Positions 49,104 to 63,973 of a DNA stretch of 64,000 nucleotides are shown here, piece after piece. The DNA lies in assembly GCA_015075305.1 (NCBI GenBank), contig JABTUS010000001.1:186001-250000 (forward strand), written 5' to 3'. The notes under the pieces are model-generated. The model did no database searches, had not been told where the DNA came from, and worked only from the letters and a program-made list of their open reading frames with translations. The DNA comes from Opitutaceae bacterium. GTDB lineage: Bacteria; Verrucomicrobiota; Verrucomicrobiia; Opitutales; Opitutaceae. The position numbers and the translations under genes were made by a program. Each line of letters starts with the position of its first letter. Position 1 is the stretch's first letter.

Positions 49104-50093
49104 CTAGAAAAACATCGCCTCACTCAGCGCGAGTTCAGGCGCAAGCAGTCGCACGGTCGAGGGCAGGTGGACCGGTTCACCGGAGAAATTCGTCTCGAAA
49201 GCACCTTGATGCGTCAGGAAATTTCCATGCCACACGAATCGGCGCGCATCGTTGTATGCCAGCTTCATCGACAGGGAATCCGAACCGGATGAGGGGGTCA
49301 CCAGAAGTTGATGTGGTGTTTTCTTAGCATCCGCCTCACACGCAGCCAGTCGGTCAGCCAGCCAGCGGCTCAGACTGAAGGCCTCCGCCCGATAATCCGG
49401 AGCGTGGGTGAGCGAAATGGACTGCAGTCCTCTGACGAGGGTTTCCGGCTGCATTCCGGACAGGAACTGACCAACGATCTGTCGGACATGAAGGAGTCGC
49501 GCAAAAGCGAGATCACGCACCGCCTCCGGACGAGGCCACGGGTGGAAAAGCGCATCGACCGGCACCACTGCCGTGTCAAAAATAACGCGTTTCGAACGGC
49601 GCAGCAGGTACTGGTACTCCGCCAGCTTTGCAGCCCCCGAAAATCGGTGCACCCAGTAGTACAAGGGCAGATCCGTCGACAGGCAGACCGAGACCTGGTT
49701 CTCAAGGTACGGGCGCGCGGAAACCGGATAACTCAGGATCACAACCTCGACGCAGCGCGTGTCGCCCTTCGACTTTCCAAAAAAGCACTCTCCATAGACC
49801 TTCGCGCGTATTTCTTTGATTTCAGATCCCTCCGGCAGCGGACAGAGCACCACCACGCGGCAGGGATACCGCTGGGCGAATCTCAACGCGACCTGGAATT
49901 GCACGAGTGCATCATCCGGGCTCGTGGGCAGTCCAAGGTGAAGCACCAGATTGAGCTGGGTCGCCTTCACCTCATCGGGCGGTAGTGCCGTTTTCCCGGA
50001 GGCTGCGACATCCGCCCACATGTCGCGCAGGCTTTTCGAAACGGAACTGACCGATGCCTCGATCCCGGGGAGCGCGTCGAATACGTCGGACAT
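49104..50093 (-). CDS. opcA: Glucose-6-phosphate dehydrogenase assembly protein OpcA
   Basis: 329 residues from the ATG at 50093, 4 bases after the zwf stop; a longer frame overlaps zwf. Family pattern: WADVAASG...ATQLNLVLHLG at the start, PCRVVVLCPLPEGSEIKEIRAKVYGECFFGKSKGDTRCVEVVIL and LPLYYWVHRFSGAAKLAEYQYLLRRSKRVIFDTAV. OpcA activates or assembles G6PDH in cyanobacteria and actinobacteria. It is less common elsewhere. The zwf-opcA-pgl order is a typical oxidative pentose-phosphate operon. Confidence 0.88.
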   Translation of the reverse strand: MSDVFDALPGIEASVSSVSKSLRDMWADVAASGKTALPPDEVKATQLNLVLHLGLPTSPDDALVQFQVALRFAQRYPCRVVVLCPLPEGSEIKEIRAKVYGECFFGKSKGDTRCVEVVILSYPVSARPYLENQVSVCLSTDLPLYYWVHRFSGAAKLAEYQYLLRRSKRVIFDTAVVPVDALFHPWPRPEAVRDLAFARLLHVRQIVGQFLSGMQPETLVRGLQSISLTHAPDYRAEAFSLSRWLADRLAACEADAKKTPHQLLVTPSSGSDSLSMKLAYNDARRFVWHGNFLTHQGAFETNFSGEPVHLPSTVRLLAPELALSEAMFF

Positions 50094-50097
50094 GCGG

Positions 50098-51639
50098 TCA
50101 GGGCTGGCGCCAGACATGATTTCCGCGGGCAAGCAGTTCGTCCGCATTGGCGGGCCCCCATGATCCGGAGGCATAACTCTCCATCCCCTCCCGGCCGGCC
50201 GCCGCCCAGGATTGCAGCACCGGCGTATACAGCCTCCAGGATGTCTCGGCTTCATCCCCGCGAATGAAGAGCGTACCGTCGCCGATCATCGCGTCGAGCA
50301 CGAGCCGTTCGTAGGCCTCCGGAGTGTTCGAGCCATATGTCGTGCTGTACTTGAAGTTCATCTTCACCGGCTGCATCCGGGTTTCGAGCCCGGGGACCTT
50401 GCCATTGAGGATCAGGCTGAGCCCCTCATCCGGCTGGATCTGGAACGCCAGCGTATTGGGCGCGAGGCTGAAGCGATCCCCCTCGGCGAACAGTGCGCCC
50501 GGGGGACGCTTGAACTGGATCGCGATCTCGCTCACCCGCCGCGCCATGCGTTTTCCGGAGCGAAGATAGAAGGGAACGCCCTGCCAGCGCCAGTTGTGAA
50601 TCGAAAGCCGGATCGCCGCATAGGTTTCTGTGGCGGATTTCGCGGCGATTCCCTCCTCCTCCAGATACCCCTTCACGGGTTTTCCCGAAATCATGCCCGC
50701 CGCATACTGGGCGCGGGCGACGTCGCCGCCGGGTCCAAGTCGAAGCGGCTGGATCGCCCGGAGAACCTTGACCTTCTCATCGCGCACAGACTCGGCGTCG
50801 AGCGACACCGGAGGCTCCATCGCCGTCAGCGCGAGGAGCTGCATGGTGTGATTCTGGATCATGTCGCGCAGCGCGCCGCTTTGCTCGTAGTAGCCGCCCC
50901 GCGTGCCAACGCCCACCTCCTCCGCGACGGTTATCTGCACGCTGTCGATGTACGTGCGATTCCAGAGCGGCTCGAAAATCGAATTGGCGAAGCGCTGCAC
51001 CAGCAGGTCCTGCACGGTCTCCTTCCCCAGATAGTGGTCGATGCGATAGACCTGATTCTCCTCGAAGACCGATCGAATCGTGCCATTCAGAGCCACCGCA
51101 GAGGACAGGTCCTTGCCGAAGGGTTTTTCGATGATGACTTTCGCGTGGTGCGGCGTGCCGCGATGACGCGCGGCCAGCCCGCTCGCGCCCAGGTTGAGCA
51201 GGATTGGCGCGAACACCGACGGCGGTGTCGAGATGTAGAAGAGTGGCTGCACATCCCTGCCTATGCGCTTTTCGATGGCGCCGATCGCCGCGGCGAGGCG
51301 GTCAAATGCCGCCTTGTCGTCGTATCCACCAGCCACATACGTCGTGTGCGCGGCCACGCGGCTCCAGACCTCGGGGTTGAGCTCCCGCCTCGAAAACTCC
51401 TTGATCGCATCGGACGCGAGGGTCCGAAACTCCTCGTCCGGAATTTCCTTCCGTCCGTAGCCAATCAGGTAAAAATCCGCCGGAAGCAGATTGTCGACCG
51501 CCAGATTGTAAACGGCCGGAATCAGCTTGCGGGCCGTGAGGTCACCGGAAGCGCCAAAAATCACGACAACGGTCGGCGGAGCGCCCCGGTGCTTGCTCAG
51601 CCCCTGAAGAAAAGGATGTCTTGAGGAATCATCGGCCAT
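50098..51639 (-). CDS. zwf: Glucose-6-phosphate 1-dehydrogenase
   Basis: 513 residues from the ATG at 51639. NADP fold VVVIFGASGDLTARKLIPAVY; active-site EKPFGKDL and the catalytic RIDHYLGKETVQDLLVQRFAN (His/Lys). C-terminal domain typical. First enzyme of the oxidative pentose-phosphate pathway, producing NADPH. It heads the three-gene run. The Tat-exported oxidoreductase at 51809 is divergent, leaving about 170 bases for promoters. Confidence 0.95.
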   Translation of the reverse strand: MADDSSRHPFLQGLSKHRGAPPTVVVIFGASGDLTARKLIPAVYNLAVDNLLPADFYLIGYGRKEIPDEEFRTLASDAIKEFSRRELNPEVWSRVAAHTTYVAGGYDDKAAFDRLAAAIGAIEKRIGRDVQPLFYISTPPSVFAPILLNLGASGLAARHRGTPHHAKVIIEKPFGKDLSSAVALNGTIRSVFEENQVYRIDHYLGKETVQDLLVQRFANSIFEPLWNRTYIDSVQITVAEEVGVGTRGGYYEQSGALRDMIQNHTMQLLALTAMEPPVSLDAESVRDEKVKVLRAIQPLRLGPGGDVARAQYAAGMISGKPVKGYLEEEGIAAKSATETYAAIRLSIHNWRWQGVPFYLRSGKRMARRVSEIAIQFKRPPGALFAEGDRFSLAPNTLAFQIQPDEGLSLILNGKVPGLETRMQPVKMNFKYSTTYGSNTPEAYERLVLDAMIGDGTLFIRGDEAETSWRLYTPVLQSWAAAGREGMESYASGSWGPANADELLARGNHVWRQP

Positions 51640-51808
51640 GGAAAATACGGAGTATGGTTGATCCCGATTTCGATGGGCAACCCCCATTTGCAGGCGCCCG
51701 TACCCGGCGTCTCATCGGTCTGAAGCGGCATGCGCTCAGCCGTCTGCGCATTGACCCGGTTTCCCACGTCTGCTCTTCTTGCGAACGGCGAACACCGCCT
51801 CCCTCCCC

Positions 51809-52930
51809 ATGAAACTCTCCAATGCAAACGTCCCCCTCTCTCGCCGCACATTCCTCGGTCAGCTCGGCGCTGCCGGTGCTGTCGCCGTCTCACCCAACCT
51901 CCTGCGCGCCGCTGAACCGCAGCGGAAGCTCAACATCGCCCTCGCCGGACTGGGCAACTATTCCACGGGCCAGTTGGGCCCCGCCCTGCGCCTGACCAGG
52001 CATTGTCGCCTCGCGGGCGTCGTGACCGGCTCGCGCGACAAGGGGCTGAAATGGGCCGGTGACTTCGGATTTCCGAAGACGAGCGTCTACAACTACGACA
52101 CCATGGCACAACTGGCCGACAATCCGGACATCGACGCGGTCTACGTGGTGACGCCCAACAGCCTGCACGCCGAACACACGATCGCCGCCGCAAGGGCGGG
52201 CAAGCATGTGATCTGCGAAAAGCCAATGGGAATCAGTGTGGCGGAGTGCGACGCCATGCTCGCCGCCTGCAGGAAGGCCGGCAAACGCCTCTCGATCGGC
52301 TACCGGCTCCACTATGATCCGTACCACCGCGAGATGGTCCGCCTCGCCCGCCCGGAGAATTTCGGTCCCTTCACCAGAATGCGCGGGCGTTTCTCATTCC
52401 GGATGCGGGGACGCCCCTGGCGTGCGATCCGAAAATTTTCCGGTGGCGGCCCGCTGATGGACGTGGGCATCTACGTCGTGCAGGCGGCGTGCATGGCGGC
52501 AGGAGGCATCGCTCCGCTCGCTGTGACCGCCCATGAGATCCTGCCGAAGAAATCGCCCGAAATCTTTCAGGACGTTGAGGAAACCATAGCCTGGACCCTG
52601 GAGTTTCCAGATGGTGTCACCTGCGACTCGCGCTGCAGCTACGCGGAGGCCGAAAACACCTTCCATGCGGAAAGCGAGAAAGGTTGGATCGATTTTACGA
52701 GAACCTTCGGCTATCGTGATCTCGCCGCAACCACGAGCCTGGGGCCGCTCAGTTTCCGAAATCCCGAGGCTAATCAGCAGGCGCTTCAGATGGATGCCTT
52801 CGCGCGCGATGTGATGGACGACACACCCAGCCTGGTGCCGGGAGAAATGGGCCGCCGCGACATGGTCATCATCGAGGCAATCTACGCCTCCGCCGCCGGC
52901 GGCGGAAAACGAATCACGATCAAAGTCTGA
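51809..52930 (+). CDS. Tat-exported Gfo/Idh/MocA-family oxidoreductase
   Basis: 373 residues from the ATG at 51809. A twin-arginine signal is clear (LSRRTFLGQLGAAGAVAVSP, RR-T-F-L), so it is folded in the cytoplasm with its NAD(P) bound and exported. Rossmann fold LNIALAGLGNYS; HVICEKPMGISVAECDAML; C-terminal domain with GGGPLMDVGIYVVQAACMAAGG. The family includes glucose-fructose oxidoreductase-type periplasmic enzymes. It ends in a hairpin-rich repeat. Confidence 0.88.
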   Translation: MKLSNANVPLSRRTFLGQLGAAGAVAVSPNLLRAAEPQRKLNIALAGLGNYSTGQLGPALRLTRHCRLAGVVTGSRDKGLKWAGDFGFPKTSVYNYDTMAQLADNPDIDAVYVVTPNSLHAEHTIAAARAGKHVICEKPMGISVAECDAMLAACRKAGKRLSIGYRLHYDPYHREMVRLARPENFGPFTRMRGRFSFRMRGRPWRAIRKFSGGGPLMDVGIYVVQAACMAAGGIAPLAVTAHEILPKKSPEIFQDVEETIAWTLEFPDGVTCDSRCSYAEAENTFHAESEKGWIDFTRTFGYRDLAATTSLGPLSFRNPEANQQALQMDAFARDVMDDTPSLVPGEMGRRDMVIIEAIYASAAGGGKRITIKV

Positions 52931-52982
52931 CGCCACAACGGGGCGACTCAACCCCGGCCCATGGCAACGCCATGGACTCAGG
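52931..52982. repeat. Hairpin repeat, copy 1 (partial)
   Basis: ACAACGGGGCGACTCAACCC then GGCCCATGGCAACGCCATGG. The last part forms an 8-bp-arm hairpin. It lacks the third hairpin of the full copies and starts immediately after the stop of the Tat oxidoreductase gene, where it may serve as its terminator. Confidence 0.6.
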
Positions 52983-53030
52983 AGTGCACGACCGATAGGG
53001 ACAGGCCGCACCGCTCGCTCGGCCATGCCT

Positions 53031-53123
53031 CAGCCCCAACGGGGCGATTCAACCCCAGCCCATGGCAACGCCATGGGTTCACAGGCGAACCGAAAATAGA
53101 GAGCCCTGAAGGGGCGACACAAT
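53031..53123. repeat. Hairpin repeat, copy 2 (complete)
   Basis: Three consecutive hairpins: CCCCAACGGGG, CCCATGGC-AAC-GCCATGGG (8-bp arms), and GCCCT-GAA-GGGGC. Conserved text between them includes GATTCAACCCCAG and GAGCCCTGAAGGGGCG. Copy 3 at 53916 has the same order. Confidence 0.75.
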
Positions 53124-53201
53124 TCTCTCGAATCTATTTCCGCTGTCCATAGCACCGTTCAGCGCTCGCGATCGTCGATTTCCGCGCTTGCAAAAATGAA
53201 A

Positions 53202-53250
53202 GGAGGGGGCGCGCTTCGTCGTGCCCTGGGGACGTATGTCGCAAGACGCC
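53202..53250. repeat. Imperfect direct repeat, copy A
   Basis: Begins GGAGGGGGCGCGCTTCGTCG and runs to the poly-GC stretch near 53250. A second copy is at 53734. Confidence 0.55.
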
Positions 53251-53320
53251 GCCGGCTCAATTCCCCCTCGGCATCTCACAATGTGATCTCAATTGTCGAT
53301 GTACCCGGTTACGGTTCGTT

Positions 53321-53524
53321 TTACCGAGCGAAATTCCCATCATAGGTGCGATGACGCTCCGGCAGCGGCGCGGCTTGGCTGGTGACATTCGTGCCGAGGC
53401 AACCAACACGCGCGGTCAATTAGTCGCGTCCGTTGTAGGTGAAGTGCCGGTACGTGGCGTCGCCATAGTCAGCACAGGTCGCGCCCTCCCGCAGTTTCTT
53501 GGTCATCTCGAACACCACAAACAT
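53321..53524 (-). pseudogene. Decayed fragment of an RHS gene
   Basis: On the minus strand an ATG at 53524 opens a frame that reads ADYGDATYRHFTYNGRD, then an in-frame TAA (53420-53422), then LTARVGCLGTNVTSQAAPLP and a final TAA at 53321. The RHS protein in this window reads ADYGDATNRQFAYNGRGE then LTAGIGYLGINVTSQAAPLP at 61975-62090, so the similarity is strong at DNA and protein level. Only this ~70-codon piece remains, in opposite orientation to the RHS gene; the stop replaces the E codon. It is a leftover of an earlier RHS gene or of a tip exchange. Confidence 0.85.
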
Positions 53525-53558
53525 TCGGGGCCGACTCCCTGGAAGTTCCCCGCGCAGT

Positions 53559-53574
53559 CGCGGAGCACGCGGAG
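53559..53574. repeat. CGCGGAG short repeat, first run
   Basis: CGCGGAGCACGCGGAG, two CGCGGAG units. The same unit recurs at 53665. Confidence 0.5.
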
Positions 53575-53664
53575 GGAGAGAAGGGTGGCTCGGGCTTCCA
53601 GCCCGCAGTCATCTTGAGGATCAATCGGAAGGTGGAATGCAGAGGTCAGCGATCGGAATGGTTT

Positions 53665-53698
53665 CACGCGGAGCCGCGGAGCCGCGGAGCACGCGGAG
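53665..53698. repeat. CGCGGAG short tandem repeat, second run
   Basis: Four CGCGGAG-type units, CACGCGGAGCCGCGGAGCCG then CGGAGCACGCGGAG, at 7-8-base spacing. Similar runs occur in intergenic DNA of this phylum, as far as I know. No coding or structural role seen. Confidence 0.6.
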
Positions 53699-53733
53699 AC
53701 AGGAGAGAACAGCAGGGAAGTTTCAATTCCGAT

Positions 53734-53784
53734 GGAGGGGCGCGCTCCGTCGTGACCAGGGAGCGTTCATCGCGCAACGGCGCC
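53734..53784. repeat. Imperfect direct repeat, copy B
   Basis: Begins GGAGGGGCGCGCTCCGTCGT and ends GCGCAACGGCGCC, matching copy A at 53202 with a few changes and small gaps. Confidence 0.55.
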
Positions 53785-53915
53785 AGAAATTTTTCCCCAG
53801 AGAACGAGAAACGCGGAACAGAAGAACACAGCAAGACCGATCACCCACCGCATCGAGAACGCCTGGATCCTTCGGCCGGCCCCTCATTGTCATTCAAGCC
53901 TCTTCCGCAGTCTCC

Positions 53916-54007
53916 GAGCCCCAACGGGGCGAACCAACCCCAGCCCATGGCAACGCCATGGGTTCAGGGACCAACAAAAACCAAGAGCCCTGAAAGGGCG
54001 GCCCAAA
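53916..54007. repeat. Hairpin repeat, copy 3 (complete)
   Basis: Same unit and order as copy 2, in the same orientation: CCCCAACGGGGCGAACCAAC, CCCATGGCAACGCCATGGG, then GAGCCCTGAAAGGGCGGCCC, about 880 bases away. Confidence 0.75.
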
Positions 54008-54357
54008 CACCCGTCGTCGGAACCAAAACTTTCACGATTCTTTGATCCATGCCACGTGAACTACGGCGTTGGGGACAGACTGATGTGCGGCTGGATAGGG
54101 ACAGGTTGTTATTCCGCCTTGAGGCGTTTGGGATGGCGATTGTGGCACTCGGCTGGCGTCGCGCTTGCATCAAGTGAGAAAGGCCTTGCGCGAAAAATCT
54201 TTCGCCGAAGTTTCCGCAGCTCACGCAATTGGGGCGATGAGAGAAAAATTTCATTGCGGACCTTGAGGAGTGTCGGCTGATCTCGCAGCGCACCAAGGCT
54301 CTGATCTCTCCCCCGATCATCGCGTTCACAGAGGCTTCGTGCCGCACCCCATGTTCG

Positions 54358-54368
54358 CCCCCCCCCCC
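54358..54368. repeat. C11 homopolymer tract upstream of RCC1 protein (possible slippage site)
   Basis: Eleven C residues followed by ACACACACA. An ATG at 54351 lies just before it but is out of frame with the RCC1 gene by one base (149 bases to the assigned start). A gain of one C would bring it into frame with no stop in between. Slippage at such tracts is a known phase-variation mechanism; here it is only a suggestion. Confidence 0.45.
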
Positions 54369-54499
54369 ACACACACAAGCTGCGGAGTTGTAGTCTGTTA
54401 CCGCGGCGATCGCACCGGCAGGTAACGAACAATTGGGAGAGTCTGCCTGAAGCGCAAAGTCAGCGCTTTCACGTCTCCGGCACAGCTTCGCGAACGGGG

Positions 54500-57295
54500 T
54501 TGTGTTCGATCGCGCAACTCTTGTTTCTCGCCTTCGGCTTCTGCTGCCACTCAGCCGTCGCTCAAAACGCGCTGATCGCGTTCGTTGATCCTCTCGTCAG
54601 CACCTATTCGCCACCGAGAGTGACGGTCATGGTCCGTCCGGATGGGACGGTTTGGAACTGGGGCACGTGGACTCTTGGGCAGCCGATTTTGCTGCCTGCC
54701 ACCGTGAGCGGCTTGACAGGAGCAGTCGCCGTCTCATCCGGACTGGCGCATGTCCTCGTCCTGAAAAGCGACGGATCCGTGTGGAGCTGGGGGAACAACG
54801 CTTCCGGGCAGTTGGGCGACGGCACGACCACCAGTCGGACAAGCCCCGTGCAGGTGTCCGGGTTGACGAGTGTCGTCGCAATCGCCGCCGGCGGCGATCA
54901 CAGTCTCGCGCTGCGCAGCGATGGTACGCTCTGGGCATGGGGACTCAATTCCAGCGGAGAGTTGGGCGATGGAACCACCACCAACCGGACCTCTCCGGTC
55001 CAGATTTCGAGTCTGTCTTCCGTCGCGGTGATCGCGGCGGGAGCGAATCATTCACTCGTCGCAAAGTCCGACGGGACCGCCTGGGCATGGGGCGCAAATA
55101 CTAATGGAAAACTCGGGGATGGAACAGCCACGAACCGCACCTCACCGGTGCAGGTTAGCGGACTGACAGGAGTTGTGGCCGTCGCCGCGGGCGGGGAACA
55201 CAGTCTGGCGGCCAAGACCGATGGAACTGCGCGGGCCTGGGGTGCAAACGCCTCCGGACAGTTGGGGGATGGCACAACGACGACGCGCTACACGTCGGTC
55301 CAAGTGTCGAGCCTGTCAGGCATCACGCTTGTTCGCGCCGGAAAGGAATCGAGCTTCGCAAGGAAGAGTGACGGCACGGCATGGGCTTGGGGCGGGAATG
55401 GTTACAACCAGCTTGGTCTCGGCGGTGGCGGAAACCGCACAACCGCCGTGTCTATTTCCGGGCTGACAGACGTCGTTAACCTTGCCGCGGGAAGATTCAA
55501 TGGCGCGGCAATCCTCGGAAATGATTCTGCGCGAGTGTGGGGCGACAACTACAGCGGTCAGATTGGTGATGGCACAACCACCACACGCACGACGCCGGTG
55601 TGGCCGATCTTCTACAATGCGCCCGACCGTCTGCTGGAAAAATTTGTCTGCATCCAGGAGAACCTCAACTATGCCGCGGACACCGTGCACCCGCTGCCAT
55701 CGGGCACCTACCGCATTGTCGTCAAGGGGTGGGGTGCCGGGGGTGGCGGCAGTCTTCCGCCCTACAGCCAGAATCTTGGCGGCGGCGGTGCGTTTGCGGA
55801 ATTTTCCCTGGAGCGTCCGGGTGGCTCCTCCGTGACTCTCACTCCGGGCCGCGGGCTGCTTGCAGGCGGCGAGAAAACCAGGTTCTCCTACGCCAGCCCT
55901 CCCGTTGCGACGATCGCCGGCGGAGGCGGTGCAGGCACCGCTGCCAATGCCCACGGTGGCGGGGGAGGCGCAGCGTCCGGTGAAAACGGCGGGCCGGGCT
56001 TGGGTTCGTCAGGAGGAGGCGGTGCCACCTCGAGCGCCAATGGAAACAATGGACCGGGCGACTCCAGTTCGCCGGATGGCAATCCCAACTACCGATACGG
56101 TGGCGCAGGCGGCGAAGGCTACTATTCGGGAGGCTCCGGAGGCAGCGGAACGACCCAAGGTGGCGGCGGTGGTGGTGGCGGCAGTTCAAAAATCGACACC
56201 GCCTACTATCCGACGGTGGTCATCGCGAAACAGGAGGGAGCAACCGGATACATCCCCGGAGGAGTCGCCGATCCCGACTACCCCGGAAGCAATGTCGGTT
56301 ACGGAGGATCCGATGGCAAAGGCGGCAACGGAGCCATCGTTCTGCTCAGCTACTCAAAGACAGCGCCGCCGCTCGTCACCATTCCCCTGTCGGCCACCTG
56401 GACAATTGGTCAGCCGCTCAGCTTTCAACTGACGGCGACAAACTCCCTCGCGCATTATGCGATGACGAACATCCCGCCGGGTCTCAGCCTCAACCGGGGC
56501 ACCGGGCTGTTGACGGGCACTCCGACGGCGACGGGCGTCTACAATTCGACGATCACTGTCGAGGACGCTTATGGCACGGGGCAGGCAAACGCGGTGTGGA
56601 CCATCGCCTTACCGGGATCCGACACGGTGTCGCCTTCGGTGCCGTCGGATTTTCAGTTCGAAACCCTGTCGGACACCTCGTTTCGCCTGATGTGGCAGGC
56701 CACCGACAATGTCGGTGTCACGGGTTACGAGGTGAGGCGCAACGGCACGCTGTACGAATCGGTATCCTCAGCGAGCAGCATTGTCTCCGGCGGCACCGCG
56801 GGTCTCACCTACACCATGACGGTGCGCGCCCGCGATGCGGCGGGCAACTGGTCCGCATGGAGTGCCGGCTACAATGTGCTTCAGGGCACGATCGGCGCAC
56901 CCACCCCGCCAACCGCACTCAACTACGCCGATCGCACGGACACCTCGATCACGCTCATCTGGGCGGAATCGACCGGGTCCCCGCCGGTTGTCGCTTATGC
57001 CGTCTATCGCGGCGGACTCCAAATCGCAACCGTCGGCGACCGGGTGTACACCGACACCGGCCTCTCGGCGAACACGTCCTACACCTACACGGTGAAGGCG
57101 CTAAATTCAGCGGGCATCCTCTCGGCTGCGAGCGCTGCGCAAAACATCTCGACGACCAACGACACCTCGACCGACAGCGATCACGACGGGGTGCCGAACG
57201 CGTTTGAAGCCGTGCTCGGCACGAATGCGAACAGCGCGAATCCCAACGATTCCGGCAATCAGACCCAGTTGAAAATCAACCAGCCCCAAAAATGA
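54500..57295 (+). CDS. Secreted RCC1-repeat/glycine-rich/Fn3 surface protein
   Basis: 931 residues from a TTG at 54500, the first start that gives a signal peptide (ends near HSAVAQ). The frame stays open upstream to 54305, so the true start could be elsewhere. Domains: RCC1-type beta-propeller repeats (about 45-375; e.g. VWSWGNNASGQLGDGTTT, LWAWGLNSSGELGDG, AWAWGANTNGKLGDG), a glycine-rich region (about 390-630), a putative-Ig domain (about 635-715, IPPGLSLNRGTGLLTGTPTATG), two Fn3 domains (about 720-890) and a Ca-binding thrombospondin type 3-like end, TDSDHDGVPNAFEAVLGTNA. No anchor is visible. Its stop overlaps the next start (ATGA), so it is translated with the RHS operon. Confidence 0.83.
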   Translation: MCSIAQLLFLAFGFCCHSAVAQNALIAFVDPLVSTYSPPRVTVMVRPDGTVWNWGTWTLGQPILLPATVSGLTGAVAVSSGLAHVLVLKSDGSVWSWGNNASGQLGDGTTTSRTSPVQVSGLTSVVAIAAGGDHSLALRSDGTLWAWGLNSSGELGDGTTTNRTSPVQISSLSSVAVIAAGANHSLVAKSDGTAWAWGANTNGKLGDGTATNRTSPVQVSGLTGVVAVAAGGEHSLAAKTDGTARAWGANASGQLGDGTTTTRYTSVQVSSLSGITLVRAGKESSFARKSDGTAWAWGGNGYNQLGLGGGGNRTTAVSISGLTDVVNLAAGRFNGAAILGNDSARVWGDNYSGQIGDGTTTTRTTPVWPIFYNAPDRLLEKFVCIQENLNYAADTVHPLPSGTYRIVVKGWGAGGGGSLPPYSQNLGGGGAFAEFSLERPGGSSVTLTPGRGLLAGGEKTRFSYASPPVATIAGGGGAGTAANAHGGGGGAASGENGGPGLGSSGGGGATSSANGNNGPGDSSSPDGNPNYRYGGAGGEGYYSGGSGGSGTTQGGGGGGGGSSKIDTAYYPTVVIAKQEGATGYIPGGVADPDYPGSNVGYGGSDGKGGNGAIVLLSYSKTAPPLVTIPLSATWTIGQPLSFQLTATNSLAHYAMTNIPPGLSLNRGTGLLTGTPTATGVYNSTITVEDAYGTGQANAVWTIALPGSDTVSPSVPSDFQFETLSDTSFRLMWQATDNVGVTGYEVRRNGTLYESVSSASSIVSGGTAGLTYTMTVRARDAAGNWSAWSAGYNVLQGTIGAPTPPTALNYADRTDTSITLIWAESTGSPPVVAYAVYRGGLQIATVGDRVYTDTGLSANTSYTYTVKALNSAGILSAASAAQNISTTNDTSTDSDHDGVPNAFEAVLGTNANSANPNDSGNQTQLKINQPQK

Positions 57296-57873
57296 AACTC
57301 CGCGCCGCTCTTTCCTCCGCCTGCCTCGTGCTCGCGGCCACGCTTTCTCTCTTCGCCGCACCGCCGGAAAAGTCCCCGGCCCTGCTCGACACCCCGGAAA
57401 TCAACGCACGCGGGCGCGCGCTGCAGGAGGCCGACATGCCGCAGCTTCAAGCCGCGCGCAGCGCGCTCAGTTCGGGTGACATCACCGAAACGGAAATCGC
57501 CCTCGGAGGTTTGGTGAAATCCCTCCCGGGCTCCGCAGGCTGGCACCGGGGAATGGCCGGGGAGCTTGTCCAACTGGCCGAAACATCGGCAAAGCCCGAT
57601 GGCAGAATCAGCCCGCGCACGCTTTTCCAGAAGGCGGAACTGCATCTTCTGGAAGCTTTCAAGAAAGCACAGACGCCCCTGCAGAAGGCCGGTGTCCAGA
57701 TCGCCCTCGGCGCACTCTACGAGCGGCGACTCGCCGACCGGACAAAGGCGCGCGAAGCCTACGAGGCGGCAGCCCGGCTCGCTCCCGAGTTTCCGGCGGC
57801 GACCGAGAATGCCGACAGGCTCCGCAGGACTGAAGCGTACTACCAAAAGGTGAGGTCCGCCAAATCGCGCTGA
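57292..57873 (+). CDS. Small exported helical (TPR-like) protein
   Basis: 193 residues with a signal peptide (about 1-22, ending SLFAA). The rest is helical, with a TPR-like end: KAGVQIALGALYERRLADRTKAREAYEAAARLAPEFPAATENADRL. The ATG overlaps the RCC1 stop by 4 bases, and the RHS start follows its stop by 4. Coupled to both, it may be a periplasmic assembly or chaperone factor for them. No family can be named. Confidence 0.7.
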   Translation: MKLRAALSSACLVLAATLSLFAAPPEKSPALLDTPEINARGRALQEADMPQLQAARSALSSGDITETEIALGGLVKSLPGSAGWHRGMAGELVQLAETSAKPDGRISPRTLFQKAELHLLEAFKKAQTPLQKAGVQIALGALYERRLADRTKAREAYEAAARLAPEFPAATENADRLRRTEAYYQKVRSAKSR

Positions 57874-57877
57874 TCCG

Positions 57878-60800
57878 ATGAAGTCGCCCCATTTCAATTG
57901 TCGTTTCGGCTTGCTCATAGCGGCCCTGCTCCTGCTTGGCGCAGGCTCCACCAGCTCCCTCCATGCGGAGGCGGAGGTGCCGCTGCATGTCCAAACCACA
58001 GCCTATGGGACCGTGCAGGGCAATGTGACCCTGTCCGGTACGTTCCTGCCAACGCTGCCCAACGGCAACGATGCCTACCGGACGGACAGCGCGACGGCGG
58101 ATTCCAACAACTGGTCCCTGTATGTCGCGATCAACAATACGAAGGTCGAACTGGGCAAGAGCTACACGGTGAGCCTGTATGGCGACTACTTCGAGTATGC
58201 TCAGGTCAACATCGTCGTCCCGCAGGGCTTCCGCGCGGTGATCGACAATCAAGTGAGAACCTCGGCCGTCGTGCTGGGCGACTTTGTATTCAGAATCGAG
58301 CCGCTGCGCCAGCACCCCGGGCTCGCCGGATACGCCTCCGAGGTGTCGAGCGTGGGTGTGCTCTGGAGCCTGCCCTTGGGAAAACTGTCCAACGGTGGTT
58401 CGGCGGGGGAGTTGGTTTTCTCGGGAACAGGCCTCCAGAGCGACTGGAAGGATCTGCTCCTTGAGGGAATCAGCTACGAATCCACCTCGGATGAGGTGCA
58501 GGTTTTCAGGGATTCCCAAACCGGAAAAATCACCGATGTCCTGAGCCCGCAGTTGGGCGTGAAGATTGATCGCAACACTTACAACGGCACGACGGATATC
58601 ACCTGCTATTCGTCCGTGAATCCGTACTATGTGCCCAATGGCACACCCCAGATTACGGGTCCCATTGTCGCCACCTATCGCATGGAAAAGGGAGCCACCG
58701 CGACCTCGCTGAAGATCACCAAAACGACCACGATCACCGAGGTGATGACGCTCTCCCGTTCGGGCACCTGGCCCAACTACCAGTGGGTGAAAACACCGTG
58801 GACCAAACTGAATACGACCCCGTTGAAGGAAATCACGACCCAGTCGACCGGCGTCAGCGGCGGGCGGACGGAATCGGTGGCTGTCCGAGTTCCGGGCGGC
58901 AGCAGCATCTACAATCTCTCGCGCACCTATGCAGACTCCAGTGCCGGCGAAATCCTGACCGCAGAAACCGTTGGTACCAGCAATGCGCTGACCGGCAGCT
59001 TTTCCTATTACACAACTCCGAGCGCGGCAACCTGGGGCAAACTCGATTCGGCCGCGCTTGGAACCGGCGGATGGGTGGCCAGCGACTACTACGGAACCTA
59101 CCCCGGCTACGGCATGGTGAAACGAACGTACAAGCCCTATCTCGATTCACCGGCGACCGTCACTAAGAACCCGTCACTTGGCGAGGTGACGTATTACGAG
59201 TATGTCTACAATAGCTTCAACGGACCACCGCGGGTCTCGCTCGCGGAGCGAAGCATCAATGGGGTGGTTGTCTCAAGATCCACCAGCACCTTTGCCTACA
59301 CCTTCGCCTATCTGGCAAGTTACGTCACGGAAACCCGCCAGACATCCGTCGCCTCCGGACAGACGCTGACGTCCGTCACCAGCACCTACGCGCCGGCATC
59401 GTCGTTCCTAGGCAACATGCCCCGATCGGCAAGCGGCCCCGATGGCGTCAAGAAGTCCTATCAGGACGCGATGGGCACCTTCGCGAACGGCACCTTCACG
59501 GGATCGAGTTCGGGCACGGACTCCTATTCGGCGGTGATCACGGGCTGCGCGACCGCAAGCTCCGAGACTGCGTCCTCGCCGTACAACGGCCCCGCCGGAT
59601 ACGGCATCCTGGGGAGCTTTGATCCAATTTACCTCGTGCCGAAGAAGTCGACCATGGAGGTGTCGATCCGCGACCGTCGCGCCCTGGTTCTGCGCACGGA
59701 ACTGCACTGCTACACGGGAAGCGGCTGGCAGCGGGTGAGCCACGAGGACTTCACGTACAACGACAGCGCGCTCCTGACCTCCAGCGTCAAGAGCAACGGC
59801 GCCACGCAAAGCAGCGTTTACAGCGGTCAGCAGAAGACGAGCGACACCGATGAAACCGGTGTGACCAAAACCTATGAATACGACAACGCGGGCCGCCTGA
59901 TCCGGGTGACGCGCACGGGCTTTGGCGGCATCAATGCGCTTTCGACCGCCTTCACCTATGACGCCATGGACCATGTGCTTTCGACAACGACCGCGGGTTG
60001 GGGCACAACAGAGACACTGGTCAAATCCGCGACGTATGACGATGCCGGTCGTGTGATTTCCGAGACGGAGCCGGGCCTGGGTGCCGTGACCCATGCCTAC
60101 AACGTGCCTTCCCGCACGCACACGATAACGCGTCCCGATGGATCCACCGTCATCGACCAGACCTACCGCGACGGCCGCCTGGCCTCCCGCACGGGTACCG
60201 GCGTTGTTGCGGAATACTACGCCTTTGGTGTCGAAACCGACGGCCGCACCTGGTCGAGAAAGGATGTCGGCCTGTCCACCTCCACCCGCTGGACCAAGGC
60301 GTGGAGCGACTGGGCGGGCCGGGCGACCCGCTCGGAGCGGCCGGCGTTCACCGGCTTGCCGAACCTCGTTGAGGAGAATTTCTATGACGCAACCACCGGC
60401 CGGCTCTACAAGACAACGAAGAGCGGCTACGCGCCCACCCGGTTCGAGTACCATGCCCTGGGAGAGGTGAAACGCAGCGGACTCGATGTCGACGACAACG
60501 GCCTTGTGCCCGCGTCGAACGATCGCATCGAGGAGAGTGAGACGATGTTCGAGTCGTTCGAGGGCGCCTGGTGGTCCAAGGCGGAGAAACGCCGCTACCT
60601 GACCGCCGGAAGCGGCACGGTGACAACGGTCGAAATCGCACGCAAGCGCCTGACGGGCTTTCCCGCGAATCGGCAGAGCGAAACACAGTCGACCGATCCC
60701 AATGGCAACGTGACCATCGCGTTGGTCGATGTCGACCGCGCCGGACGCACTGTTGTGCGCACGACGAGCCGCGTCGGAATCGCCGGCAAACAGGTCGAAA

Positions 60801-63800
60801 CCCTGGTCAATGGACTTCCCGTCCGTGCGCTCGACTTCAACGGACTGCTCATGTCGACCCAGTATGACGGGCTCATGCGCGTTTCCGCAGTGATCGATTC
60901 GCGCGGCAATGCAACCCGCACGGCCTACTACACCGGCTCCGCCCTGAAGCAGAGTGTCACCGACGCCGCGAATCACGCCATCGCCACCTACGGCTATGAC
61001 ACTTCCGGACGCGTCATCTGGCAGGCGGATGCGCTGGGTCACCTGACTCGCACGAGTTACTCCCTGCGTGCACAACCCCACCGCACCTGGGGCGGTGGCA
61101 CTTATCCTGTCGAGTTTGGCTACGACGCCACGTTTGGCGATCGCACGAGCCAGAGCACTTTCCGGGGCGGCACGGGCTGGGATGGCGCCACCTGGCCCGG
61201 AAGCCCCGGCACAGCCGACACCACGACCTGGACATACGACGCGCCCTCCGGCCTCAACACGACCAAGACCGACCCCCTCGGCCGCGACGAGCGTTACACC
61301 TGGAATCTCCGCGGACAGCTCAACACCCGGGAGTGGTCCCGGCTGGTGACGATCGGTCCGGCCGCTGGTCAGCGTGTCAAAACGACCTACACCTACAGTG
61401 CCACCACGGGAGAACAGACGGCCATCGCCTACAACGACGGCCTCACGACGGATTTGACATACGCCTATTCGCGCACCGGCCTGCCGGACACGATCACCGA
61501 CCGCACCGGCACGCGGACATTCACCTATCATCTGCCCTCGTCGACAGTGGTGGCTGAAGCATTGCCGACTGGCTACTTCGGCGGACGAAAGATCCTCTAC
61601 AAACGCGAGTCGGTGCTCGCCGGTTTGATCGGACGGCCCATCGGCTACAAACTCGGCACCGTCGCCCTGCCTTCTCAGGACCAGGAGGTGACCTACGGCT
61701 ACGAAAATCTCGACAGGCTCACATCCGTCAGTGTCGGCACGGCGAATGCGAGTGCTTGGAACACCTTCCGCTACACCTATCGCGAGGATTCGGATCTGAT
61801 CGAAACCCTGACGGTGGACAACAGTCCCTTTGTCGTGATGCGGACCTATGAGGAGAACCGCGACCTGCTGACGAGCATCGAGTCGAAGTCGGGAAGCACG
61901 ATCTACACGAAGTTCTCGTACACCTACGATGCGCGCCGTTTCCGCTCGACGGTATTGCAGGAGGGCACGGCGTATGCCGACTATGGCGACGCCACAAACC
62001 GCCAGTTTGCCTACAATGGACGCGGGGAGTTGACTGCGGGCATCGGCTACCTCGGGATCAATGTCACCAGCCAGGCTGCGCCCCTGCCAGGTCGCCGGCA
62101 TGAATACGCCTACGATTCCATCGGCAACCGCCAGTGGTCGAACAGCACAGGCGTCAGCGCGCTGCGCGACGATTACACGGCCAATGCGCTGAACCAGTAC
62201 GTGGCGCGTGAGAACAACACGCTATCACTCTCAGGTACGGCGACCACCGATGCGGTGGTCGCCGTCAAGGGCCGCACGGTGACGGCTGGGCGGCAAGGGC
62301 GGTTCTGGAGCGACGAGGTGACGGTTTCGAATGTGCTCGGTCCGTGGGCGGGTCCGCTTTCGGTCTACGCCACGAAGCCCTCGGGCGGGAGCAATGTCAT
62401 GCGCATAGACTCGCGCGCGGCGCAGTTGCCCGCGGTGTCCCAGAGCTTCAGTTACGATCTCGATGGCAACACGCTCTCGGATGGGATCTGGGAGTACCAG
62501 TGGGATGCCGAGAACCGGCTTGTCCGCTTGGAAACAACGGTAGCTGCCAGAAGCGCCGGCTTCGCGCATCGCATCCTGAATTTCACGTACGACTACCTCG
62601 GACGCCGCGTCCAGAAGCAGGTGATGGACGGCGTCACCTCGACGGAGCTTTCGTCGCAACGCTTCATCTACAATGGCTGGGATGTGATCGCGGAATATTC
62701 CGTGTCGGCGGGCACGACCTTGGACAAGCTCCAGCGCACCTATGCGTGGGGCATTGACCTTGCGTCATCGCTGACAAAGGCTGGCGGCGTGGGCGCCCTG
62801 CTGCAATTTGCGAACACGCCGACCGGCCAGACCTACCTGCCGACCTACGACGGCAACGGCAACGTGGCGTCGCTCGTCAACCTCGGCACCGGAGCCCTCG
62901 CCGCGTCCTACGAATACACGCCTTTCGGCGAAATGCTCCGCGACGAAGTGCTGGACAACGCCGTCAGTACGTATGCCTTCAAGTTCTCGACCAAGTGGCG
63001 GGATGCGGAGACTGGTTGGTCGTATTATGGGCGACGGTACTATGACGCCAGAAATGGGCGGTTTATTGGGCGAGATCCCGCAGGGGAGAAGGGCGGATTG
63101 AATTTGTACGGGTTTGTTCAAAATGATGTAGTTAATAGAATCGACAAGAACGGATGTACACCTTTGATCAGTGCAGGGCTTAGCGCTTTGGTTGATTTCG
63201 GCGTCCAATTATACTTCAACGGTTGGGACCTCACAGAAGTCAACTATGCTCAAATTGGAGTTACTTTTGCAGTTGGACTGACTGGGTTTGGTGCGATTTC
63301 GGCGATGACTAGTGCTATAAAAGCTGCGAGACTGGCTAAGCTCGCAAAAACTGCTGAACGTATTTGGCAGAATCAAAATGGCACGCTTATTGGTCTTCCA
63401 ATGACGACCATAGTTCGCCAAGAAGCCCTCGACGCAATTGTCGCAGAAGGGATGGCAGGAGTAGCGTTAGGTGCTGCAGCAGCAATAGTAGAGGAAGTCG
63501 GAAAAAAGTTGGTAGGCAGTGACAATGCGCCAAGTGATCAGGTCGATTCACAAGGCCCCGGCTCATCAAACCCGGCTCCTAGTGTGGAAAGGACTCTCTC
63601 CACAGGCTATAGAGTAGTGCAACCGTCGCCAGGGGACGACGGAGTTCGCGTATACTTCTTCAGCACTTCATTAAGATCAGCTAGCTCGTCGTCCGCGTCG
63701 GGTGAAATATTTGGACAAGGAATGGTCTCAGGGGCTCCCGCCATTGGGATGGCTCCAATGATAGTTACTCCAGATTCAAATCCTTCGAAGAGCGGTCAAG

Positions 63801-63973
63801 GTGGAACCAGTGGGTCTGGAAGCAAAGGGAATGACGGAAGAAAGAGTGACAATGATAGGAAAAGTGATGAAGAGGAAGAAGACGACGGAAATGCCATCTT
63901 TGTTTCCCCGTGGGAATTGAATATATCCGCGCACGATGATTTGGTAAAACTGAGGGAGCTTCATTTGAATTGA
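57878..63973 (+). CDS. Secreted RHS/YD-repeat protein with C-terminal variable tip
   Basis: 2031 residues with a Sec signal peptide (about 9-31). N-terminal 600 residues are not recognised. From about 630 to 1700 run YD-type repeats such as YEYDNAGRLIRVTRTGFGG, FTYDAMDHVLSTTTAG and ATYDDAGRVISETEPGLG, which form an RHS shell. The RHS core motif is YYGRRYYDARNGRFIGRDPA, then GGLNLYGFVQNDVVNRIDKNG, with Asp 1733 and Asp 1756 as likely autocleavage residues. The tip (about 1760-2031, 63155-63973) has hydrophobic helices first, then a Ser/Gly/Asp/Lys-rich end; it is AT-richer than the rest. The gene is coupled to the TPR-like gene. No VgrG, PAAR or other T6SS marker is seen, so the protein is exported by Sec. 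Confidence 0.9.
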   Translation: MKSPHFNCRFGLLIAALLLLGAGSTSSLHAEAEVPLHVQTTAYGTVQGNVTLSGTFLPTLPNGNDAYRTDSATADSNNWSLYVAINNTKVELGKSYTVSLYGDYFEYAQVNIVVPQGFRAVIDNQVRTSAVVLGDFVFRIEPLRQHPGLAGYASEVSSVGVLWSLPLGKLSNGGSAGELVFSGTGLQSDWKDLLLEGISYESTSDEVQVFRDSQTGKITDVLSPQLGVKIDRNTYNGTTDITCYSSVNPYYVPNGTPQITGPIVATYRMEKGATATSLKITKTTTITEVMTLSRSGTWPNYQWVKTPWTKLNTTPLKEITTQSTGVSGGRTESVAVRVPGGSSIYNLSRTYADSSAGEILTAETVGTSNALTGSFSYYTTPSAATWGKLDSAALGTGGWVASDYYGTYPGYGMVKRTYKPYLDSPATVTKNPSLGEVTYYEYVYNSFNGPPRVSLAERSINGVVVSRSTSTFAYTFAYLASYVTETRQTSVASGQTLTSVTSTYAPASSFLGNMPRSASGPDGVKKSYQDAMGTFANGTFTGSSSGTDSYSAVITGCATASSETASSPYNGPAGYGILGSFDPIYLVPKKSTMEVSIRDRRALVLRTELHCYTGSGWQRVSHEDFTYNDSALLTSSVKSNGATQSSVYSGQQKTSDTDETGVTKTYEYDNAGRLIRVTRTGFGGINALSTAFTYDAMDHVLSTTTAGWGTTETLVKSATYDDAGRVISETEPGLGAVTHAYNVPSRTHTITRPDGSTVIDQTYRDGRLASRTGTGVVAEYYAFGVETDGRTWSRKDVGLSTSTRWTKAWSDWAGRATRSERPAFTGLPNLVEENFYDATTGRLYKTTKSGYAPTRFEYHALGEVKRSGLDVDDNGLVPASNDRIEESETMFESFEGAWWSKAEKRRYLTAGSGTVTTVEIARKRLTGFPANRQSETQSTDPNGNVTIALVDVDRAGRTVVRTTSRVGIAGKQVETLVNGLPVRALDFNGLLMSTQYDGLMRVSAVIDSRGNATRTAYYTGSALKQSVTDAANHAIATYGYDTSGRVIWQADALGHLTRTSYSLRAQPHRTWGGGTYPVEFGYDATFGDRTSQSTFRGGTGWDGATWPGSPGTADTTTWTYDAPSGLNTTKTDPLGRDERYTWNLRGQLNTREWSRLVTIGPAAGQRVKTTYTYSATTGEQTAIAYNDGLTTDLTYAYSRTGLPDTITDRTGTRTFTYHLPSSTVVAEALPTGYFGGRKILYKRESVLAGLIGRPIGYKLGTVALPSQDQEVTYGYENLDRLTSVSVGTANASAWNTFRYTYREDSDLIETLTVDNSPFVVMRTYEENRDLLTSIESKSGSTIYTKFSYTYDARRFRSTVLQEGTAYADYGDATNRQFAYNGRGELTAGIGYLGINVTSQAAPLPGRRHEYAYDSIGNRQWSNSTGVSALRDDYTANALNQYVARENNTLSLSGTATTDAVVAVKGRTVTAGRQGRFWSDEVTVSNVLGPWAGPLSVYATKPSGGSNVMRIDSRAAQLPAVSQSFSYDLDGNTLSDGIWEYQWDAENRLVRLETTVAARSAGFAHRILNFTYDYLGRRVQKQVMDGVTSTELSSQRFIYNGWDVIAEYSVSAGTTLDKLQRTYAWGIDLASSLTKAGGVGALLQFANTPTGQTYLPTYDGNGNVASLVNLGTGALAASYEYTPFGEMLRDEVLDNAVSTYAFKFSTKWRDAETGWSYYGRRYYDARNGRFIGRDPAGEKGGLNLYGFVQNDVVNRIDKNGCTPLISAGLSALVDFGVQLYFNGWDLTEVNYAQIGVTFAVGLTGFGAISAMTSAIKAARLAKLAKTAERIWQNQNGTLIGLPMTTIVRQEALDAIVAEGMAGVALGAAAAIVEEVGKKLVGSDNAPSDQVDSQGPGSSNPAPSVERTLSTGYRVVQPSPGDDGVRVYFFSTSLRSASSSSASGEIFGQGMVSGAPAIGMAPMIVTPDSNPSKSGQGGTSGSGSKGNDGRKSDNDRKSDEEEEDDGNAIFVSPWELNISAHDDLVKLRELHLN

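What the first reader, a model, noticed from the sequence alone, without database searches (positions are those of the whole stretch)
53321..53524. Inverted, decayed RHS fragment inside the repeat island
The minus strand carries ~68 codons strongly similar to the RHS gene at 61975-62090 (ADYGDAT..., NVTSQAAPLP), with an in-frame stop in place of Glu. It points to an older RHS gene, now mostly lost, in the opposite direction. A fragment like this offers homology for recombination with the functional gene. Its match is internal to the RHS shell, so it could also seed gene conversion of the shell.
Basis: seen in the sequence. Interest (0 to 1): 0.6.

Follow-up and report, generated by a model that had tools for sequence, protein, structure and literature searches.

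The report
Scattered repeat carrying an RHS piece
The supposed relic of an RHS toxin-shell gene is one of about twenty scattered copies of a composite repeat in which a small mobile-type repeat is joined to the same internal piece of an RHS gene, which hints at a way that pieces of such genes spread and reshuffle.

Summary
Observation confirmed: minus-strand 53361-53493 matches RHS nt 4079-4211 (window 61956-62088) at 77% DNA identity over 133 bp, E 1e-23, with TAA replacing a Glu codon. The DNA match is about 44 codons, not 68. The interpretation changes: this is not a lone decayed gene. A short repeat, REP_B, abuts an RHS piece at 20 mapped places on 7 contigs; in 19 of 20 the piece begins at RHS nt 4075-4083. 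The left end is sharp in 17 aligned copies, and right-hand repeat tracts are shared. REP_B flanks, inverted, a RAYT-type transposase gene here and in one relative, and also occurs without RHS. The REP_B+RHS fusion was seen in none of 56 other genomes. A second RAYT-type repeat, REP_A, heads other RHS pieces; four of five truncated RHS cassettes with tips begin at REP_A or REP_B. Best reading: a composite REP element with RHS cargo, found only in this genome, copied around it, probably from its REP_B end. How it moves is inferred; no empty site was found, and spread by recombination is nearly as likely. Novelty: new variant of known kinds.

The parts
53361..53493 (-). RHS-derived piece (matches RHS nt 4079-4211), with an in-frame stop in place of Glu
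   Evidence: 77.4% DNA identity over 133 nt, E 1.3e-23; translation
53494..53549 (-). REP_B leader; left end of the composite at 53549
   Evidence: 88% to the REP_B module over positions 6-54; core GGAGTCGGCCCCGAATGTTTGTGG at 53515-53538, 2 mismatches; left-end profile of 17 copies
53131..53360 (-). tract M3a downstream of the RHS piece; its first part (53293-53360) may be decayed RHS, its later part (53131-53292) is shared with composites of the other form
   Evidence: module map; pairwise alignments, e.g. 81% over 385 nt including REP_B and RHS with C8:233-234 kb
53032..53131 (-). palindrome-rich repeat unit M3b (a unit of the 'repeat island')
   Evidence: 88% to M3b; single-strand fold of 53030-53131 z -3.05; the M3b query has 54 places in the genome
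52932..52989 (-). second, shorter M3b unit
   Evidence: 78% to M3b positions 50-107
53916..54005 (-). M3b unit on the other side of the composite
   Evidence: 81% to M3b positions 19-109
53737..53784 (-). repeat matching M3a positions 108-155 (direct repeat of 53206-53253)
61956..62088 (+). the homologous segment inside the intact RHS gene
57878..63973 (+). RHS gene, 2031 aa, Rhs-associated core at residues 1680-1759
   Evidence: TIGR03696, 71.5 bits against a cut-off of 32.5; no Pfam family at E up to 0.001

Best explanation
The fragment is one copy of a dispersed composite repeat: [REP_A]-REP_B-RHS piece-palindromic repeat tracts (M3b/M3a). REP_B is a REP of the kind that flanks a RAYT (IS200/IS605-related tyrosine transposase) gene, and such a gene is present in this genome. 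Shown: a fixed left joint, a sharp left end, shared right tracts, 20 mapped copies on seven contigs, no fusion in the other genomes searched, and REP_B existing without RHS and around RAYT-type genes. Inferred: a REP_B insertion beside, or fusion to, a truncated rhs cassette made a founder unit; units starting at REP_B were then copied to new places, most likely with RAYT acting on single-stranded DNA; internal deletions gave the '4211' form (window) and the '4295' form, each of which spread again. The RHS piece is now passive cargo, but it offers RHS-homologous seams through which rhs cassettes can recombine.
For: 20 REP_B-RHS joints within 15 nt, 19 of them at RHS nt 4075-4083 and one at 4042; shared flanks; conservation jumps at the REP_B left end (0.15 bit mean at -40..-4, 1.17 at -1, 1.11 mean at 0..35; 17 left ends); 13 of 13 RHS pieces that end at nt 4293-4296 run into M3b; REP_B in inverted orientation around a Y1_Tnp ORF here and in G023, and beside one in G008; of 20 REP_B pattern hits here 12 lie beside an RHS piece and 8 do not, reversed control 0; REP_B in 4 of 37 relatives, none of those 13 hits with RHS nearby; REP_B+RHS fusion in 0 of 56 other genomes; tandem units at C7:94.3-96.5 kb, each starting at REP_B but with different right ends.
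Against: No inverted REP_B at the right end and no fixed right end. No empty site or target duplication was shown: at the three loci compared with congeners, homology ends near the copy. RAYT action on these units is inferred only; both RAYT-type proteins score under the NCBIfam RAYT cut-off (52.8 and 48.5 against 80 bits), and the REP_A and REP_B strands fold no better than shuffles. Shared variation among copies is of coding type, which a single capture followed by neutral copying does not predict. Many copies lie in islands rich in rhs and IS sequences, where passive duplication is plausible.
Confidence: 0.55

Rival explanations
1. Relics of displaced rhs cassettes: 5'-truncated rhs pieces with tips were duplicated by homologous recombination and IS activity and shrank by deletion. 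REPs landed in front of a founder and were carried along; RAYT had no part in moving the RHS DNA.
For: Three long copies run from the same joint to about the core end, and the DNA after the core end differs from cassette to cassette, as in displaced tips; shared variants among short copies lean to third codon positions, 7/12/32; C13:48 and C7:100 share a longer duplicated stretch; several copies sit in rhs or IS islands.
Against: The sharp left end at REP_B in differing contexts, shortened forms that recur at several places with the same internal joints, and copies between apparently ordinary genes fit element-like copying better.
Confidence: 0.35
2. A leader for short rhs genes: REP_A-REP_B supplies the 5' region and a start codon for truncated rhs genes that were, or still are, expressed; the window copy is a dead one.
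For: An ATG in frame with RHS lies one or two codons before the joint in 5 of 16 copies examined; C7:95350-96594 is an open stretch of 414 aa from such an ATG; coding-type shared variation.
Against: 11 of the 16 copies have no ATG right at the joint, most are short or frameshifted, and no expression data exist.
Confidence: 0.07
3. One reading: an older RHS gene stood here in the opposite direction and was eroded to this piece.
For: RHS identity, opposite strand, in-frame stop.
Against: The left joint and the flanking tracts are shared with about 20 copies elsewhere; the RHS gene finds no other RHS sequence in the window outside itself at E 1e-4.
Confidence: 0.03

Closest known systems
RAYT-associated REP sequences and BIMEs (Nunvar et al. 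2010, PMC2817692; abstract and section 6 read)
   Same: REP_B and REP_A each flank a Y1_Tnp ORF in inverted orientation and occur elsewhere in the genome, singly, in pairs and in composites.
   Different: The abundant REP_B form here carries a gene-derived RHS piece; the head and palindrome differ from the GT(A/G)G-headed gammaproteobacterial REPs; copy numbers are tens, not hundreds.
Displaced (dissociated) rhs fragments and tips (Jackson et al. 2009, PMC2935791; section 10 and passages read)
   Same: Partial core pieces with differing tips exist in this genome; that paper also notes core fragments without a tip in two E. coli strains.
   Different: Theirs are direct repeats downstream of the rhs gene with near-identical core. 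The window piece is inverted, upstream, 77% identical, tipless, internal to the shell and dispersed genome-wide with REP joints.
Polymorphic toxin cassettes (Zhang et al. 2012, PMC3482391; passages only; author name recalled)
   Same: Standalone cassettes that recombine with a full toxin gene.
   Different: No REP caps appear in the passages seen; the window piece carries no toxin domain.
ISs that insert into REP sequences, e.g. ISPpu9 (PMC8450116; search listing and start of abstract only)
   Same: A 1.86-kb IS sits inside REP_A at several places here.
   Different: That is a neighbour of the composite; the window copy has no such IS and the RHS-bearing composite itself encodes no transposase.

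Membership tests
RAYT-associated REP (for REP_B) | a RAYT gene flanked by two copies in inverted orientation | tested here: met
   L069 positions 1211 (+) and 2264 (-) around ORF 1224-2310; L106 (G023) 978 (+) and 2027 (-) around ORF 984-1977; up to 4 mismatches allowed
RAYT-associated REP (for REP_B) | multiple copies, also outside the RAYT locus | tested here: met
   20 hits at up to 2 mismatches, reversed control 0; this is low against the more than 100 per genome usual in the paper
RAYT-associated REP (for REP_B) | GT(A/G)G head followed by a GC-rich imperfect palindrome | tested here: inconclusive
   GGGG-TCRG-CCCC is present, but GTGG lies on its 3' side on this strand; fold z 0.12
RAYT (protein at C2:110390) | Y1_Tnp domain with HUH motif | tested here: met
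   Pfam Y1_Tnp over cut-off; RNHYHLA in the ORF
RAYT (protein at C2:110390) | NCBIfam equivalog model for RAYT (NF047646) | tested here: inconclusive
   best hit, 52.8 bits against a cut-off of 80
Displaced rhs fragment (for the window piece) | partial core near-identical to the adjacent rhs gene, as a direct repeat downstream, with its own tip | tested here: not met
   inverted, upstream, 77% identity, no tip
Displaced rhs fragment (for the long copies) | partial core with a differing tip | tested here: met
   five truncated cassettes reach the core end; apart from 37-38 nt in two pairs, no DNA match after it among the seven sequences compared
Non-autonomous transposable element | defined left and right ends | tested here: inconclusive
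   left end sharp, right ends varied
Non-autonomous transposable element | empty site or target duplication | tested here: inconclusive
   no comparable empty site at three loci; target duplications were not examined systematically
Rhs (for the window gene P0001) | Rhs-associated core domain | tested here: met
   TIGR03696 at residues 1680-1759, over cut-off

The most novel reading that the evidence does not exclude
RAYT transposases mobilise rhs cassettes. Two REP families, each tied to its own RAYT gene, cap the 5' end of truncated rhs cassettes and fragments at several distinct joints (REP_A|4222, REP_B|4080, REP_B|4042, and a REP_A leader in front of a second rhs type). RAYT nicking at these REPs could release single-stranded rhs pieces that recombine with rhs genes, which would give a source for the circular intermediates that Jackson et al. 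proposed for tip exchange; the short fragments would be by-products.
Probability: 0.12. Interest if true: 0.75.

Novelty: new variant of a known kind. Interest (0 to 1): 0.45.

Why it matters
Rhs and other polymorphic toxins change tips by a route whose DNA mechanism is, as far as I know, not settled. Here REP sequences with resident RAYT-type genes sit at the cut points of rhs cassettes, and one shell segment has been carried to about twenty places; this makes a concrete, testable link between two systems. My searches of the held open-access library found no paper that joins them: 'REP-associated tyrosine transposase' + 'Rhs', 0 papers; 'RAYT' + 'Rhs' as whole words, 0 papers; 'rhs' + 'repetitive extragenic palindromic' + 'transposase', 3 papers, seen as a listing only, none with a term in its title. 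Subscription papers are mostly not held. It is also a warning that an isolated rhs fragment need not mark a lost gene.

Tried and rejected
A lone decayed gene was set aside because joints and flanks are shared. An RNA of a known family: no Rfam match at gathering scores in 50000-58500. Support from another organism: the only genome-contig hit for the RHS protein, a 3.1-kb contig labelled as a Pirellulaceae MAG (L085), is 99.87% identical to C1:252120-255253 of the window's own genome, so it is the same locus, probably mis-binned, and was not counted. Empty sites were sought at the window locus, C2:59 kb and C13:43 kb; congener homology ends near each copy, so nothing was decided (one G007 hit lies near a contig start, so that break may be an assembly end). 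Combinatorial joining at REP_A: in part it is a 1.86-kb IS inserted into REP_A. Gene conversion of the RHS gene by fragments: in a comparison of the two long RHS copies the lower identity at nt 4101-4200 (87 of 100) is matched elsewhere (86 at 801-900, 87 at 5101-5200), so I claim nothing. Single-strand folds of REP_A and REP_B are not significant.

Full report
What was checked. Minus-strand 53361-53493 aligns with RHS nt 4079-4211 (window 61956-62088) at 77.4% over 133 nt, E 1.3e-23, and the translation has a stop in place of Glu. The RHS gene at 57878-63973 is an open frame of 2031 aa with a Rhs-associated core at residues 1680-1759. The DNA-level match is shorter than the stated coordinates on both sides.

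The fragment is not alone. The 204-base query finds 21 places in its own genome, itself and the RHS gene included. I mapped five modules (REP_A, REP_B, RHS, M3a, M3b) on the stretches fetched from this genome. Most stretches were chosen because they held matches, so these are counts of what was found, not rates. REP_B abuts an RHS piece within 15 nt at 20 places on contigs C1, C2, C6, C7, C8, C9 and C13. In 19 of the 20 the RHS piece starts at nt 4075-4083; in one (C13:48819) at 4042. Three more REP_B features have an RHS piece within 120 nt and seven have none. Thirteen RHS pieces, not all headed by REP_B, end at nt 4293-4296, and all thirteen run into repeat M3b. Three others end at 4211 and run into tract M3a (the window copy, C1:254845, C8:233900), with C7:94983 nearly so. 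Three copies run on to nt 5231-5282, about the core end (C1:456539, C1:459304, C7:95355). The window copy reads, on the minus strand, REP_B 53549-53494, RHS 53493-53361, M3a 53360-53131, M3b 53131-53032.

Ends of the unit. In alignments among 19 copies with 1 kb of left and 1.5 kb of right flank, shared sequence in the pairs listed (nine copies against all) mostly begins at REP_B, 60-70 nt before the RHS joint, or a little inside it, and ends at varied points. Exceptions: C6:54 and C1:254 share REP_A too, C13:48 and C7:100 share a larger stretch, and C8:213 and C1:51 share an IS copy on the left. In 17 left ends aligned on REP_B, column information averages 0.15 bit at -40..-4, is 1.17 at -1 (A in 14 of 17) and averages 1.11 at 0..35. 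There is no comparable right end.

What REP_B is. The pattern GGGGTCRGCCCCTAAYGTTTGTGG with up to 2 mismatches hits 20 places here and 13 places in 4 of 37 relatives (G001, G008, G009, G023); the reversed control hits nothing in any of the 38 genomes. Of the 20, 12 lie beside an RHS piece and 8 do not; of the 8, one belongs to a RAYT-type locus and three to inverted REP_B pairs (C3:86505/86557, C1:752860). None of the stretches around the 13 hits in relatives has RHS sequence at E 1e-4. At C2:109710 (+) and C2:110763 (-) two REP_B copies flank, in inverted orientation, an ORF with a Y1_Tnp domain over the Pfam cut-off and an HYH motif. The same arrangement is seen in G023, and a REP_B lies beside such an ORF in G008. 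NCBIfam's RAYT model is the best hit but under its cut-off (52.8 against 80 bits). A second repeat, REP_A (42 places at up to 3 mismatches, control 0), likewise flanks a second such gene at C11:90406, which scores 48.5 bits on the same model. Being flanked by two inverted REPs is what Nunvar et al. 2010 give for RAYT genes (PMC2817692, abstract and section 6 read). I therefore call REP_A and REP_B RAYT-type REPs, with the reservation that head and palindrome differ from the gammaproteobacterial form and fold no better than shuffles.

Restriction to this genome. A 271-base query from the C6 copy (REP_B part, then RHS from query position 54) matched 5 of 57 genomes: its own and four others. Three of those (G005, G007, G008) match only from query position 53 or later, the RHS part, and G010 has a 34-nt match. 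So the fusion was seen in none of the other 56.

REPs cap other rhs pieces. REP_A lies directly on RHS at nt 4220-4222 at four places (C1:252238, C2:58966, C8:12718, C9:76580). Five 5'-truncated cassettes of this RHS type reach the core end; four begin at REP_A or REP_B and one (C9:289072) does not. After the core end, those five, the window gene and the broken long copy at C6:183185 share no DNA apart from 37-38 nt in two pairs, as expected for displaced tips (Jackson et al. 2009, PMC2935791, section 10 and passages read). On C2 a different rhs type forms an array in which three units start with the same leader: REP_A with its extension, then a 66-67 nt piece homologous to the RHS segment (73-75% to the gene; 80-82% to the C1:51240 copy), then the other rhs. 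C1:682118 carries a REP_A extension (72% alike) that shows no RHS match in the map. The composite has thus become joined to a second rhs type.

When did the copies diverge? Against their consensus the 21 aligned copies differ at codon positions 1/2/3 in 80/61/186 cases. In 17 short copies, private changes are 38/24/45 and shared variants 7/12/32. Shared variation is therefore largely of coding type and private changes are closer to even. This fits more than one rhs source, or exchange with rhs genes, followed by decay; it counts against a single capture with purely neutral copying. The counts are not independent, because copies share ancestry.

Mechanism. Shown: composite structure, a sharp left end at a RAYT-type REP, dispersal, and shortened forms with the same internal joints at several places. 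Inferred: RAYT action. The recombination rival is nearly as good, because several copies lie in rhs or IS islands, the right end is ragged, and no empty site could be read: congener homology ends at or near the neighbouring gene at the three loci compared (window, C2:59 kb, C13:43 kb). An in-frame ATG at the joint in 5 of 16 copies and one open 414-aa stretch leave room for short expressed rhs genes.

Verdict. 'An older gene, now mostly lost' does not. 'Homology for recombination' gains indirect support. The finding is a new variant that joins two known kinds, RAYT-type REPs and displaced rhs pieces.

Noticed in passing
C1:459406, C1:252237, C8:238409 (L026, L017, L020); C7:13247-15182 (L078): An IS of about 1.86 kb (copies 96-98% identical) sits inside REP_A at several places; at C7 the two sides of the insert carry a perfect 107-nt direct repeat, a long target duplication if that is what it is.
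   Followed up: partly
C2:448-461 kb (L070): Array of a second rhs type whose units start with REP_A; in the open stretch 449382-451475 two REP_A copies are read through in frame between two rhs parts.
   Followed up: partly
C6:183185-188390 (L024): A second long copy of the window's RHS gene, 95% identical in DNA, with stops and frameshifts and another tip.
   Followed up: partly
L085 (JADYZV010000053.1): A contig filed under a Pirellulaceae MAG is 99.87% identical to C1:252120-255253 of this genome; probably mis-binned.
   Followed up: yes
window 52930; C2:59 kb and C13:43 kb (L029, L025): All three composite copies compared with congeners lie at or near a point where conserved gene order ends, which would fit rearrangement between copies; three is too few to claim it.
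   Followed up: partly
C1:50980, C8:212929, C2:456072: The same IS (integrase-type ORF; 'IS481-like' is my recollection, no family search was run) lies just upstream of REP_A at three composites; the first two copies are 97% identical over 1.39 kb.
   Followed up: partly
C8:66-67 kb and C10:90-91 kb (L079, L080): Two REP_A copies are followed by the same non-RHS sequence; stretches of 341 nt (98%) and 236 nt (95%) are shared, so REP_A may head other duplicated cargo too.
   Followed up: no
window 54500-57295: Between the fragment and the RHS gene lies an ORF of 931 aa with RCC1 repeats, two fibronectin type III domains and a putative Ig domain.
   Followed up: no
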